The notes under the pieces were generated by a model. It was not told where the DNA came from. It worked only from the letters and a program-made list of their open reading frames with translations, and ran no database searches. A stretch of DNA of 64,000 nucleotides from Chloroflexota bacterium (GTDB taxonomy: Bacteria > Chloroflexota > UBA11872 > VXOZ01), in contig JAPPLM010000055.1 in assembly GCA_028874195.1 (NCBI GenBank), positions 1 to 64,000 of the forward strand. Direction: 5' to 3'. Shown here one piece after another: positions 48,722-54,160 of this stretch. The position numbers were made by a program, and so were the translations under genes. Position 1 is the stretch's first letter. Each line of letters starts with the position of its first letter.

Positions 48722-49300
48722 ATGAACCAAGTCATTCCGGAACTCCAACCCACGCCTGAACGCCGGCCCGCGGTGCTAGTAGCCCACGACGTCACGCTAC
48801 GCGGCGGTGCGGTAGCACTGCGTCCTATGGCGGAAGGCGACTGGGACGTGCTGCTCAAGTGGAACAACGACCCCGCCGTCATGGAGCTGGCAGACGCCAA
48901 CCCATTCGAAGAGACCACGTTGGAGGACTTGCAGACCATCTATCGCTGGATCTCCACCCATGCCTACTGCTTCATTATGGAAGTAGCGGGCAAGCCCATC
49001 GGCGAGTGCTGGCTGCAGCGGATGAATTTGCAGCGCATCGTGGCGCAGTTTCCCGATCAAGACCTGCGCCGCATCGACCTCATGATCGGCGAGAAGGAGC
49101 TATGGGGTCGCGGCTACGGCACGGAGGCCATCAGGCTGCTCGTGGAATTCGGCTTTCGGCAGCAGGGGGCCGATGCCATTTTCGCGCCTGTCGCGGCAGA
49201 CAACCGCCGCTCCCAGCGCGCCTTTCAGAAGAACGGGTTTACGTGTTACGCTCGCCATCGGGAGTCCGACGGCAGCATAAACACCGATCTGGTTCTGTGA
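48722..49300 (+). CDS. GNAT family N-acetyltransferase (RimJ/RimL or AAC(6')-like)
   Basis: The 192-residue protein has VALRPMAEGDWDVLLKWNND, IGECWLQRMN, the acetyl-CoA loop GEKELWGRGYGTEAIRLLVE (R/Q-x-x-G-x-G/A type, WGRGYG) and ADNRRSQRAFQKNGF. It probably acetylates a protein N-terminus or an amine such as an aminoglycoside; it cannot be told which. The initiator lies 6 bases from a -10 box, so translation may be leaderless. Confidence 0.87.
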   Translation: MNQVIPELQPTPERRPAVLVAHDVTLRGGAVALRPMAEGDWDVLLKWNNDPAVMELADANPFEETTLEDLQTIYRWISTHAYCFIMEVAGKPIGECWLQRMNLQRIVAQFPDQDLRRIDLMIGEKELWGRGYGTEAIRLLVEFGFRQQGADAIFAPVAADNRRSQRAFQKNGFTCYARHRESDGSINTDLVL

Positions 49301-49547
49301 AGGAAGCAATTCGCACACGATGGGGTGTGAAGAGATCCTGAGTAGCCAGGTGAAGAATTAGACCCTGAGCGGAAAACTGGTCTTTGACTCCCATGGGCCT
49401 TGTCCAAAGCAGTTCAAGCTGTGTCAGTCTGAATCTCCTCTCCTCAAAATTCCAGCGAAGTGCTGATCGAATTGTCCGATGGGAGAGTATCGGAGTAATA
49501 TGGCACAGATTGAGCGTTCCTAGATCCACGAAACGAGTAGTCTTGCT

Positions 49548-50573
49548 ATGGCACGCGCGGACCTGCTAAAGCAACTGTTCAGGGCGTACCGGGACAGTGA
49601 TCGAGAGTCTTTCATGGCCGTAGCTCGTACAATTGCTGACGAGGAGCGCAAAAAGCATCATACCATCCTTGCCAAAGAGTTGCTTCGAATTCTAGATGAC
49701 GGGATAGTTGGCGCATCTCCGAAGCTTCTTGGTTCGCTTGAGCCTCCACCCAGGGACCAAGAAAAGAAGACTCCGCTGATAGAGGTCAAATACCCAGATC
49801 GCTTCTTCCAGGACTTGGTGCTAGATGTTGAGACACAAGACCTTCTCTTCAAGGTCATGCGCGAGTTTGTTGAATGGGATGTATTGGAGGAAAACGGCTT
49901 GCGGCCAAGCCACAAGCTGCTGTTCTGCGGCCCACCTGGATGTGGCAAGACAGCAACTGCTGAGACTATTGCTGGCGAATTGGGCCTCCCGCTGATCTAT
50001 GTTCGCTTCGACTCTGTGGTCTCGTCATTGCTTGGAGAAACCGCTACAAATCTAAGGAAGGTGTTTGAATTCATAGGCCGAGACACTTGGATTGTACTTT
50101 TCGATGAATTTGACGCCATTGGCCGGTCACGCGACGATATTACCGAGCACGGGGAGATTAAGCGCGTGGTAAATTCCTTCCTACAGATGCTGGACAATTT
50201 TGACGGTCGTTCACTTATTGTTGCTGCCACAAACTTTGAACAGGCGCTTGATCCAGCCCTGTGGAGAAGATTTGACGAGGTAGTAAGATTTGAGAGACCG
50301 ACGCAAGTTCAGATTGAGAGACTCATGAAAATAAGACTTCAGCCATTCTCAAACAGCAGGCTATCTATAAGGGAATACGCAAATCAACTAGAAGGTTCGA
50401 CGTTTAGTGAAGTTGATAGAATCTGTATTGAAGTGATGAAAGCATGTGCCTTAGAAGGCAGGACAAGACACCGGAAGCAGGATCTTGAGGCAGCGATTGA
50501 GAGTCATGACTTTCGAAAGCAAGCGTTGCAGAAGTCTATCCCCACTGACGCTCCAAGAGTTGCTAACGAATGA
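49548..50573 (+). CDS. ietA: AAA+ ATPase, IetA-like defence protein
   Basis: The 341-residue protein has a helical N-terminus (ADLLKQLFRAYRDSDRESF), then Walker A FCGPPGCGKTATAETIAGEL (near residue 128), Walker B VLFDEFDAIG (Asp186, Glu187), and sensor and Arg-finger segments IVAATNFEQALDPALWRRF. The classic AAA+ core is complete. It is followed 6-18 bases on by a subtilase gene. An AAA+ ATPase paired with an S8 protease is the ietAS (Gao_Iet) anti-phage architecture; the pairing is the basis of the name. The genes are AT-richer than their flanks, consistent with horizontal gain. The start ATG has no strong ribosome site. Confidence 0.82.
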   Translation: MARADLLKQLFRAYRDSDRESFMAVARTIADEERKKHHTILAKELLRILDDGIVGASPKLLGSLEPPPRDQEKKTPLIEVKYPDRFFQDLVLDVETQDLLFKVMREFVEWDVLEENGLRPSHKLLFCGPPGCGKTATAETIAGELGLPLIYVRFDSVVSSLLGETATNLRKVFEFIGRDTWIVLFDEFDAIGRSRDDITEHGEIKRVVNSFLQMLDNFDGRSLIVAATNFEQALDPALWRRFDEVVRFERPTQVQIERLMKIRLQPFSNSRLSIREYANQLEGSTFSEVDRICIEVMKACALEGRTRHRKQDLEAAIESHDFRKQALQKSIPTDAPRVANE

Positions 50574-50591
50574 ACGGAATTGGAGGCGCAT

Positions 50592-51929
50592 GTGATTGAT
50601 TTTGGCCGCTTGGAGCAATTGCCTCATGTAGTACTACAACGCGAGCCAGAGCATGGGGAAGTGAGGTCACGGCCTTCTCCAAGACCCGGTGTGAAGCCTC
50701 GCTCCAACCGAAAGCAACATGCTGTTCACATGGAAGAGCAAACTGCAAAGTCAATCACAGAGTTGGCCAGGATTAGAAGCATTCTTAGAGTTGATCCAGA
50801 TAGACTGTTGGTCTTGCGCTTAGAGACCTTTGATGAAAACCAGCGCGAAGCACTAGAGCGATTAGGTGCTAGTGTACTGGAAGAATTGAAAGACGAACTA
50901 GAAGGAAGAGCTTCATTTAAGCTGATTGTGCAATTCTCTGACAAGCAAGATCTGGAAAAGTTTCGAACTGAGTTCAGGACTTACTCCGATTCCAAAGTCG
51001 AAGAAGTTGAACTACCACCCAAAATGCGAGAGAAGTTGCTTGACGCTCTCAATAGTGTCTCGACTGTTAAAGCAACTGAGAGAATAGGGCCTCGTTTGCT
51101 GCGATTCGGAAAACCCAATCTCGAGGCATTTTTCCTGGACGTGGACATTTGGAATCCAGATTCGCAAAAGGACTATCTCGACTTACTTTCCGAGGTCCGG
51201 GACTTCGTGGAGTCACGTGGTGGGCAGATCGCGCATGACCCGCTGAGAATACCGTCAATGATTTTATTCAGGGTGCGAGCAAATCCCCAGCTGTTGGAGG
51301 ACTTGCTGCAATATGACCAAGTATCACTAGTAGACTTGCCACCGGTGCCAGATCCAGAGGACTCATTTGATCTTCTGCAGCCGATTGAGATTCCTGAAAA
51401 GCTACCCCCAGTTCCCGAAGGAGGAGGCCTAGTTTGCGTCGTGGACTCTGGAGTTGTAGCAGGACATCCCTTGCTACGAGGAGTAATCGTTGCAACAGAA
51501 GACTTCGACTCCGGTGAAGGTAGCCCGGTTGATCAAAACGGGCATGGTACTCAAGTTGCTGGTCTTGTAGTCTACGGTGAAATCGCACGGCGCATGCAGG
51601 GGAACGAATGGCTGCCTCAGGTTCGAATTTGCTCTGCCAAGGTCTTGAGAAACAGTGTCAATCCAATTGATGGGTCGAATGGAGTAGCAATCTTTCCCGA
51701 CGAAAAGCGGGTAGAATCTCAGCTAAAGCAAGCTATAGAGCACTTTCACAATGCGCATGGCTGCAGAGTATTCAATCTTTCAATTGGGCGTAGTGACGGC
51801 GTTTATTCTGGTGGCAGGCAGATGCCGTGGGCCGAGTTAATGGATCAATTGGCAAGAGACCTGGATGTCGTCATCGTTGTTTCAGCGGGAAACGTAGCGG
51901 ATCCAGAAATGCCGGAGGCCACAAGCTGA
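50592..51929 (+). CDS. ietS: S8 subtilase, IetS-like, N-terminal part up to in-frame TGA
   Basis: The 445 codons encode an N-terminal prodomain-like region and the first half of the S8 catalytic domain. The catalytic Asp285 lies in CVVDSGVVAGHPLL and His318 in QNGHGTQVAGLV; VVSAGN holds the oxyanion Asn. The frame ends at a TGA (51927-51929) with no frameshift, and the same frame continues with the remaining domain, including the catalytic Ser. I place the start at GTG 50592, with GGAGG 5 bases upstream; a TTG at 50580 is the alternative. Alone this part cannot be an active protease. It was likely one protein of about 827 residues. Confidence 0.75.
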   Translation: MIDFGRLEQLPHVVLQREPEHGEVRSRPSPRPGVKPRSNRKQHAVHMEEQTAKSITELARIRSILRVDPDRLLVLRLETFDENQREALERLGASVLEELKDELEGRASFKLIVQFSDKQDLEKFRTEFRTYSDSKVEEVELPPKMREKLLDALNSVSTVKATERIGPRLLRFGKPNLEAFFLDVDIWNPDSQKDYLDLLSEVRDFVESRGGQIAHDPLRIPSMILFRVRANPQLLEDLLQYDQVSLVDLPPVPDPEDSFDLLQPIEIPEKLPPVPEGGGLVCVVDSGVVAGHPLLRGVIVATEDFDSGEGSPVDQNGHGTQVAGLVVYGEIARRMQGNEWLPQVRICSAKVLRNSVNPIDGSNGVAIFPDEKRVESQLKQAIEHFHNAHGCRVFNLSIGRSDGVYSGGRQMPWAELMDQLARDLDVVIVVSAGNVADPEMPEATS

Positions 51930-52016
51930 AATCACTTTCAATATGAAGTAGCCCAGTCGCTAATTAGACCTAGCCATCGAGTAATAGACCCTGCCACTGC
52001 TGCTCTTTGTGTCACT

Positions 52017-53075
52017 GTGGGATCAGTCGCAAGGAGAGGTGATCCCTATATGAGGGAGTTGGGGCCGGTTCGACTAGCAGCTTCAGCAGAAGGATTTCCC
52101 TCGCCATTTACGAGGAGCGGCCCTGGTGTTGCAAGAGCTGTAAAGCCAGAACTGGTCGCACCTGGAGGAAACTTCGCAGTCACCGAAATTGCGGGCAACC
52201 CTAAGTGGATTAGAAACGATCCGAACCTGGGAGAACCAACTCTAAATTACAATTTTGCATCGGAGGGTCCTCTTCGTGCTGTCTGTGGCACTAGTTATGC
52301 TGCGGCACAGGTTTCACATATCGCGGCTCGCATGGAATCGACATTGAGAAGTCAGTTCGAAACTGTACCTAGCCAGAACCTTATCCGTGCCCTGCTGGTA
52401 AGTTCCGCAGAAGTTCAAGAAGACTCGAAGCGGCTATTTGAAGATAATCAGTCTGACCTGCTCAGCACAGTTGGCTATGGGAGACCAAGTGTAGAATTCT
52501 GCTGGTCATCACGCAATAGGGTCGTCCTGCTCGCCCAGGACGAAGTTCCGCATCGTTCGTTTCACGTTTACTCTTTGGTCGTTCCGAGCGACTTCATTAA
52601 GGAGTCGGGAGAGAGATCTATATCGGTAAGTTTGGCCTACGATCCTCCGACCAGAATAAGTAGACAAGACTATATTGCGACCTCAATGTGGCTGGAGATA
52701 TTTGGTGGCCTAACAACCGAGCAGCTAATAGAATACAAGTCCAAATATGAAGGAGATCAGGAACCCCCCACGGTGCCCAAAGGGAATCAGCTCGAGTTTT
52801 CTCCACGTAGGAATCAGATCAGCACCTCTACTATTCAAAAGAGGTCTTGGAGTTCAAACCAAGGGACAATCTTTCGAAACCGTGTGGATCCTAATGGGAA
52901 TTCTACTTTGCACGTTCTTGTTGGGTGTCGGCCACGATTTCCAGATCCTTCGGGGGAAGATACGCAAAAGTATGCTTTGGTCGTTACGCTCGAGCATGAA
53001 AACATGGGAATTAATATCTACCAGCAGATAGTAAATAGAGTGAGGACCAGGGCAAGGCTCTTGGCAAATTCATAG
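52017..53075 (+). CDS. ietS: S8 subtilase, IetS-like, C-terminal part carrying the catalytic Ser
   Basis: The 352 codons from a GTG at 52017 lie in the same frame as the preceding part, and the intervening codons 51930-52016 are also open and homologous in style (VIDPATAALCVTVGSVA spans the junction). The Ser of CGTSYAAAQVSHIAARM (52293-52295) is the third residue of the triad. Beyond it lies a long C-terminal domain as in defence subtilases. As a separate ORF it has no ribosome site, so it is probably the 3' part of an interrupted gene and not an independent protein. Confidence 0.72.
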   Translation: MGSVARRGDPYMRELGPVRLAASAEGFPSPFTRSGPGVARAVKPELVAPGGNFAVTEIAGNPKWIRNDPNLGEPTLNYNFASEGPLRAVCGTSYAAAQVSHIAARMESTLRSQFETVPSQNLIRALLVSSAEVQEDSKRLFEDNQSDLLSTVGYGRPSVEFCWSSRNRVVLLAQDEVPHRSFHVYSLVVPSDFIKESGERSISVSLAYDPPTRISRQDYIATSMWLEIFGGLTTEQLIEYKSKYEGDQEPPTVPKGNQLEFSPRRNQISTSTIQKRSWSSNQGTIFRNRVDPNGNSTLHVLVGCRPRFPDPSGEDTQKYALVVTLEHENMGINIYQQIVNRVRTRARLLANS

Positions 53076-53116: not shown

Positions 53117-54160
53117 TCACGCGAAGCAAGCCGCAATTCCGCTGCCTTCACTTACAGTGCCAACTATCCAGAGCGGCTCATTAGCGGCATTGAACGCTCC
53201 TTCCAGATTGGCTTGCTCTTGGGGTGGCACGGCTGCCAAGAGGCCGCCGCTGGTCTGAGGATCGAAGAGGAGCGCGGCAAGCGCAGGAGGAACAGCGGCA
53301 TGCAGCGTGAGCAAGCCTTCGCTCTCAAGGTGCGCGCGGTTACGATCCAGCCCGCCCGGCACCACGTCGTCCTGGGCGTAGTTTAGCGCGCCGGGGAGAA
53401 GCGGGACGGCTTCGGCATTGATTTCAAAACGGACGTTGCCGTGGCGCGCCATCTCCATGGCGTGACCGAGCAGGCCGTAGCCGGTCACGTCGGTACAGGC
53501 GTGGACGGTGAATTGTTGAAATAGACGTGCCGCACCGCCGTTGAGACGGCACATACTCGCTATCGCTTCTTCCAGGTACGCTGTGTCCACGCAATCGCGC
53601 TTGTGGGCCGTGGTGATCACCCCCGTGCCTACGGGTTTCGTCAGCACTAGCAGGTCGCCCGGCTGCGCGCCGGACTTGGTAAAGATACGATCCGGGTGCA
53701 CCTGTCCCGTCACTGCCAGGCCGTATTTGGGTTCCTCGTCCGTCACCGTGTGCCCGCCGGCAATCACCGCGCCGGCTTCGATGACCTTGTCCGCGCCGCC
53801 CTGAAAGATGCGGCCCAGGATTTCCAAGTCAAGATCGTCAGGAAAACCCGCAAGATTGAGGGCAAAGAGCGGTTCGCCGCCCATGGCGTAGACATCGCTG
53901 AGGGCATTGGCAGCAGCAATTTGGCCGTAGGCATAGGGATCGTCGACTACCGGCGGGAAGAAGTCAGCCGTGCTGATGACGGCCTGCTCGTCACTGATGC
54001 GATACACGGCGGCATCGTCAGGAGCCGTAAGACCCACGAGCAAATTGCTATTCACTTGTGATGGGAAGGCGCGCAGCACCTGCGCGAGCTCGGCGGGGCC
54101 GAGTTTCCCCGCTCACCCCGCGCAGGATGCGAGGCTGGTCAACTTTATCGGCGTAGACAC
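53117..54160 (-). CDS. selD: Selenide, water dikinase with predicted selenocysteine
   Basis: Taking an in-frame TGA (54115-54113) as selenocysteine gives a 347-residue protein, the E. coli SelD length. It begins at GTG 54160 with STPIKLTSLASCAGU then AGKLGPAELAQVLRAFP. This aligns with SelD IRLTQYSHGAGCGCK, placing Sec16 at the catalytic Cys17 position and Lys19 at the essential Lys20. The rest matches SelD: DDAAVYRIS, STADFFPPVVDDP, VIAGGHTV, TDVTGYGLLGH and FDPQTSGGLL. AGGGCGG precedes the GTG. SelD makes selenophosphate for Sec-tRNA and selenouridine. A shorter ORF starting at 54079 would lack the active site. Confidence 0.92.

What the first reader, a model, noticed from the sequence alone, without database searches (positions are those of the whole stretch)
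49548..53075. AAA+ ATPase and subtilase pair matching the ietAS defence system, with the protease split by one in-frame TGA
IetA-like and S8 subtilase genes are adjacent on AT-rich DNA. The subtilase frame is open from 50592 to 53075 except for one TGA (51927-51929). Asp285 and His318 lie before it, Ser568 after it. No frameshift is needed, and coding similarity to subtilases continues across the stop. The defence system is therefore inactivated by a point nonsense mutation, is read through, or yields a truncated non-proteolytic form.
Basis: partly seen in the sequence, partly recalled or inferred. Interest (0 to 1): 0.82.

Follow-up and report, generated by a model that had tools for sequence, protein, structure and literature searches.

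The report
Toxin-dead ietAS pair, recent nonsense codon
A known two-gene toxin-antitoxin and anti-phage module (AAA+ ATPase IetA plus subtilase IetS) was inserted next to selD in this bacterium, and its protease gene carries one recent stop codon that most likely kills it; this is an ordinary form of gene loss and not a recoded codon.

Summary
An IetA-like AAA+ gene (49548-50573) is followed by an IetS-like subtilase frame (50592-53075), open except for one TGA at 51927-51929. Profiles call the first gene IetA and both halves of the second IetS. The genome decodes UGA as selenocysteine (SelA, SelB, tRNA-Sec; the neighbouring selD is itself a selenoprotein), so recoding was tested first. It fails: the TGA lies in a variable loop, none of 66 homologs has Cys there, and no stable hairpin follows. 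The frame after the TGA shows no decay: 55% identity to the closest intact homolog, against 54% before it, and 29 of 30 conserved positions kept. The stop is therefore recent, or an assembly error. The pair sits in about 3.8 kb of AT-rich DNA missing from the same site in five congeners. Published work shows such pairs act as antitoxin and toxin, and that losing the toxin is harmless. Broken IetS beside intact IetA recurs in plasmids through other lesions. Best reading: an acquired IetAS module whose toxin was silenced by a nonsense mutation. Known family, low novelty.

The parts
49548..50573 (+). IetA-like AAA+ ATPase (341 aa), putative antitoxin/regulator, intact; Walker A GPPGCGKT at residue 128, Walker B LFDEFD at 184
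   Evidence: PADLOC IetA 2e-86; Pfam AAA 1.7e-29; 68% identical to the IetA of L078; motifs
50592..51929 (+). 5' part of the IetS-like subtilase up to the in-frame TGA: N-terminal domain, Asp285, His318, oxyanion SAGN; predicted product 445 aa without the catalytic Ser
   Evidence: PADLOC IetS 1e-57; Pfam Peptidase_S8 3.1e-16; GTG start after GGAGG
51927..51929 (+). single in-frame TGA, codon 446, in a variable stretch between SAGN and (I)DPA
   Evidence: no Cys in any of 66 homologs; downstream RNA -5.2 kcal/mol, z about -0.5
51930..53075 (+). 3' part of the IetS frame, open and undecayed: Ser568 and the C-terminal domain
   Evidence: PADLOC IetS 4.8e-49; Pfam Peptidase_S8 7.5e-13; 55% identity to L078
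49294..53131 (.). approximate extent of the inserted AT-rich segment, absent from the same site in five same-genus genomes (borders uncertain by about 10-20 bp)
53117..54115 (-). selD (flank, not part of the module): selenoprotein with in-frame TGA at 54115-54113; used as the positive control for UGA recoding
   Evidence: NCBIfam selD 4.9e-107; SCAG-U-AGKLGP, also in congeners, with strong hairpins after the TGA

Best explanation
This is a horizontally acquired IetAS-type module, a two-gene operon: AAA+ ATPase IetA upstream (antitoxin/regulator) and subtilase IetS downstream (toxin/effector protease), inserted between a GNAT gene and selD. Working form (inferred from published relatives): IetA holds the IetS protease in check; loss of the module, or a phage trigger, releases IetS, which harms the host cell. 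Here IetS carries a recent nonsense substitution at codon 446. Translation should stop after Asp285, His318 and the oxyanion Asn but before Ser568 and the C-terminal domain, giving a 445-residue fragment that cannot form the catalytic triad, so the module should be toxin-dead and antitoxin-intact. Shown here: family, insertion, single TGA, no later decay, no sign of recoding. Inferred: loss of protein activity, toxin-antitoxin behaviour of this copy, and that the TGA is real and not a base-call error.
For: IetA/IetS profiles on the gene and on both halves; one TGA in an otherwise full-length frame and no second copy in the genome. Empty site in five congeners and lower GC. No Cys at the site in 66 homologs; no hairpin after the TGA while the selD control has one. 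Downstream frame undecayed: 54.4% vs 55.3% identity to L078, 22/22 and 29/30 conserved columns kept, no rate shift against six outgroups. Published antitoxin/toxin roles of AAA-ATPase/subtilase pairs; toxin loss is tolerated (PMC6755753, PMC5006074, PMC8562856). IetS broken beside an intact IetA in six plasmid loci.
Against: Lack of decay after the stop is also what read-through or an assembly error would give. No reads, expression data or conspecific genome were available. Toxicity and defence by this distant branch are untested, and the NCBIfam equivalog cut-offs are not reached.
Confidence: 0.74

Rival explanations
1. Assembly or consensus error: the real genome has a sense codon there and a working ietAS.
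For: The frame downstream is undecayed; the genome is an 81-contig assembly; reads were not available.
Against: Neighbouring conserved genes in the stretch syntenic with a congener are unbroken, so the assembly is not generally error-prone.
Confidence: 0.15
2. The TGA is read through by a near-cognate tRNA often enough to make some functional full-length IetS.
For: Undecayed downstream frame with Ser568 kept; the site is in a loop that tolerates many residues, so any inserted residue could be accepted.
Against: No other homolog has a stop there; no structure follows the TGA; a recent stop explains the same data without a special mechanism.
Confidence: 0.06
3. The truncated 445-residue form is stable and has a non-proteolytic role, for example as a decoy that binds IetA.
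For: The whole N-terminal domain and half of the protease domain remain in frame with a good start signal.
Against: No full-length IetS exists in the genome for it to modulate; half a subtilisin fold is unlikely to be stable; no homolog has this architecture.
Confidence: 0.03
4. The TGA encodes selenocysteine.
For: The genome has SelA, SelB, tRNA-Sec and a selenoprotein SelD next door.
Against: No Cys in 66 homologs at a variable, non-catalytic site; no SECIS-like hairpin, in contrast to selD.
Confidence: 0.01

Closest known systems
IetAS of Agrobacterium plasmid pTiC58 (toxin-antitoxin; also the anti-phage system ietAS of PADLOC/NCBIfam)
   Same: AAA+ ATPase gene directly upstream of a large S8 subtilase gene; IetA and IetS profiles match over nearly full length
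   Different: Distant sequence, below the NCBIfam equivalog cut-offs; protease gene interrupted by a TGA
SgiA/SgiT of Salmonella Genomic Island 1
   Same: Same two-gene plan; shown to act as antitoxin (AAA-ATPase) and toxin (subtilase) (PMC5006074)
   Different: Intact; carried by an integrative mobilizable element; the window copy lies in a bare 3.8 kb insertion without an integrase
AAA-ATPase/subtilase pair _0132/_0133 of minimal mycoplasma
   Same: Same order of genes; deletion of the ATPase alone is lethal, deletion of the protease is not (PMC6755753)
   Different: Intact; different phylum
ietAS of an uncultured Dehalococcoidia (OX638325.1, L078)
   Same: Closest relative found: IetA 68%, IetS 55% identical, same gene order
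   Different: Intact IetS frame
Subtilases Tk-SP (3afg) and KP-43 (1wmd)
   Same: Best fold matches to the modelled read-through IetS
   Different: Stand-alone proteases, not paired with an AAA+ ATPase; TM-score on the query only 0.38-0.43

Membership tests
IetAS (ietAS / IteAS) | AAA+ ATPase of the IetA family with Walker A and B motifs | tested here: met
   PADLOC IetA 2e-86; motifs GPPGCGKT and LFDEFD
IetAS (ietAS / IteAS) | Adjacent downstream S8 subtilase of the IetS family with Asp/His/Ser | tested here: met
   Both halves match IetS; D285, H318, S568 present in the frame, though S568 lies beyond the stop
IetAS (ietAS / IteAS) | Uninterrupted IetS reading frame | tested here: not met
   TGA at codon 446: a member by descent, probably not a functional one
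IetAS (ietAS / IteAS) | NCBIfam equivalog cut-offs (IteA 510 bits, IteS 900 bits) | tested here: not met
   IteA 228 bits; IteS 44 and 57 bits on the two halves: a distant branch
IetAS (ietAS / IteAS) | Toxicity of IetS neutralised by IetA, or anti-phage protection | not testable with these tools
   Needs expression in a host
Selenoprotein (Sec-encoding UGA) | Genome encodes SelA, SelB, SelD and tRNA-Sec | tested here: met
Selenoprotein (Sec-encoding UGA) | Cys (or Sec) in homologs at the UGA position | tested here: not met
   0 of 66 homologs have Cys
Selenoprotein (Sec-encoding UGA) | SECIS-like hairpin shortly after the UGA | tested here: not met
   -5.2 kcal/mol, z -0.42 to -0.52, versus about -24 kcal/mol for selD; no Rfam match

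The most novel reading that the evidence does not exclude
The TGA is a translational brake: low-level read-through supplies just enough active IetS, so that a protease toxin is kept scarce at the level of translation in a genome already equipped to read UGA.
Probability: 0.04. Interest if true: 0.7.

Novelty: new member of a known kind. Interest (0 to 1): 0.2.

Why it matters
It shows a simple route by which a toxin-antitoxin/defence module dies after transfer: the protease toxin is lost first while its AAA+ partner stays. It also shows why an in-frame TGA in a selenocysteine-decoding genome must be tested before it is called either a pseudogene or a recoded gene. Otherwise it is ordinary gene decay.

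Tried and rejected
Selenocysteine: rejected on homology and structure. Split gene or reinitiation: the next listed start in this frame, GTG at 52017, would give a fragment with Ser only, and none of the 66 aligned homologs is split there. Frameshift: none needed. Integrase or target-site duplication at the borders: no repeat pairs the two ends and only two genes lie in the segment. Rfam elements near the TGA: none. A single-protein scan of genome contigs found nothing because its peptide patterns were too specific; the alignment-based scan worked. Excess of IetS loss over IetA loss: suggestive but not countable without bias, since the plasmid loci were fetched because they looked broken; among the genome and viral loci L125 and L126 have broken IetS only, L123 has a possible IetA break in a low-coverage contig, and L124 is degraded in both.

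Full report
OBSERVATION. The window holds an AAA+ ATPase ORF at 49548-50573 and, 18 bp downstream, a subtilase frame from the GTG at 50592 to 53075. That frame has one stop inside it, the TGA at 51927-51929 (codon 446). PADLOC names the first gene IetA (2e-86) and each half of the second IetS (1e-57 and 5e-49), with the halves meeting at neighbouring model positions. A whole-genome six-frame search sees one IetS match over 11-785 of 795 positions with '1 TGA' inside, and no second copy. The NCBIfam equivalog cut-offs are not reached, so this is a distant branch of the family.

ACQUISITION. GC drops from about 60% to 48-50% over the pair. In five genomes of the same genus the flanking GNAT and selD genes are next to each other without ietAS. 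Alignments to their junctions stop at 49293-49305 and resume at 53119-53139. The insertion appears to have replaced the last residues of both neighbours: GNAT now ends ..NTDLVL, where congeners continue for about a dozen residues. No integrase and no flanking repeat was found.

IS THE TGA RECODED? This had to be asked, because the organism has the machinery to decode UGA as selenocysteine: SelB, SelA and tRNA-Sec are all over their cut-offs. The neighbouring selD carries an in-frame TGA (54115-54113, minus strand) in the motif SCAG-U-AGKLGP; the same TGA was read in four of five congeners (L047, L048, L049, L051; the motif search did not hit L050), with strong hairpins after it. The IetS TGA fails the tests that selD passes. 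Sixty-six homologs from genomes, plasmids and viral contigs have Thr, Arg, Val, Ile, Leu, Gln, Ala, Pro, other residues or gaps there, never Cys. The column lies in a variable stretch between the oxyanion-hole motif SAGN and the (I)DPA motif; in a confident model (mean pLDDT 87.6) residue 446 opens a helix after that strand. The RNA after the TGA folds no better than shuffled sequence, and no Rfam family matches. Selenocysteine is rejected.

HOW OLD IS THE STOP? The closest homolog, L078 from an uncultured Dehalococcoidia chromosome, is intact and 55% identical overall. Identity is 54.4% before and 55.3% after the TGA; 22 of 22 and 29 of 30 strongly conserved columns are kept (the exception is P572, Ala here); against six outgroups the window branch is not clearly faster downstream. 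No second stop or frameshift exists. So the substitution is recent, or is an assembly error, or the downstream part is still used. Conserved genes in the part of the window that is syntenic with a congener are unbroken, so the assembly is not generally poor, but one wrong base cannot be excluded without reads.

HOW IT WORKS. Relatives of this pair have been tested by others. SgiA/SgiT of Salmonella Genomic Island 1 behave as antitoxin and toxin and are compared there with IetA/IetS of pTiC58 (PMC5006074). In a minimal mycoplasma, deletion of the ATPase gene alone is lethal, while deletion of the protease gene or of both is not (PMC6755753), and the related protease was toxic in heterologous hosts (PMC8562856). 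IetAS is also listed as an anti-phage system whose mechanism is described as unknown (PMC9958689, PMC11878078). I infer that the acquired module worked by IetA restraining the IetS protease, and that a stop before Ser568 disarms it: a 445-residue fragment has no catalytic serine and lacks the rest of the subtilase fold and the C-terminal domain. Loss of the toxin first is the route the published genetics allows. It recurs: in plasmids of Pseudomonas aeruginosa (IS30 insertion in one, a one-base break in another), Bradyrhizobium quebecense (deletion of about 0.16 kb), Agrobacterium salinitolerans (one-base break) and Rhizobium (two), IetS is interrupted beside an intact IetA ORF. Those plasmids were fetched because they looked broken, so this shows recurrence and not a rate; one-base breaks may be sequencing errors.

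VERDICT. A known kind of module, distant in sequence, horizontally acquired, with a toxin gene silenced by a single nonsense codon. Interest is low.

Noticed in passing
window 53117-54115 (minus strand): selD is itself a selenoprotein gene: an in-frame TGA (54115-54113) in SCAG-U-AGKLGP, shared with congeners; ordinary ORF calling starts it too late, at 54079.
   Followed up: yes
window 49280-49305 and 53117-53139: The ietAS insertion seems to have replaced the C-terminal tails of both neighbours (GNAT and SelD) compared with five congeners.
   Followed up: partly
L185, L186, L187, L188, L189, L190 (plasmid loci): IetS is interrupted by different lesions (IS30, deletion, frame breaks) beside an intact IetA in six plasmids.
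   Followed up: partly
window residue 572 of the IetS frame (about 52305-52307): The Pro that normally follows GTSxAA in subtilases is Ala here (GTSYAAAQV), the only lost position among 52 strongly conserved columns.
   Followed up: no
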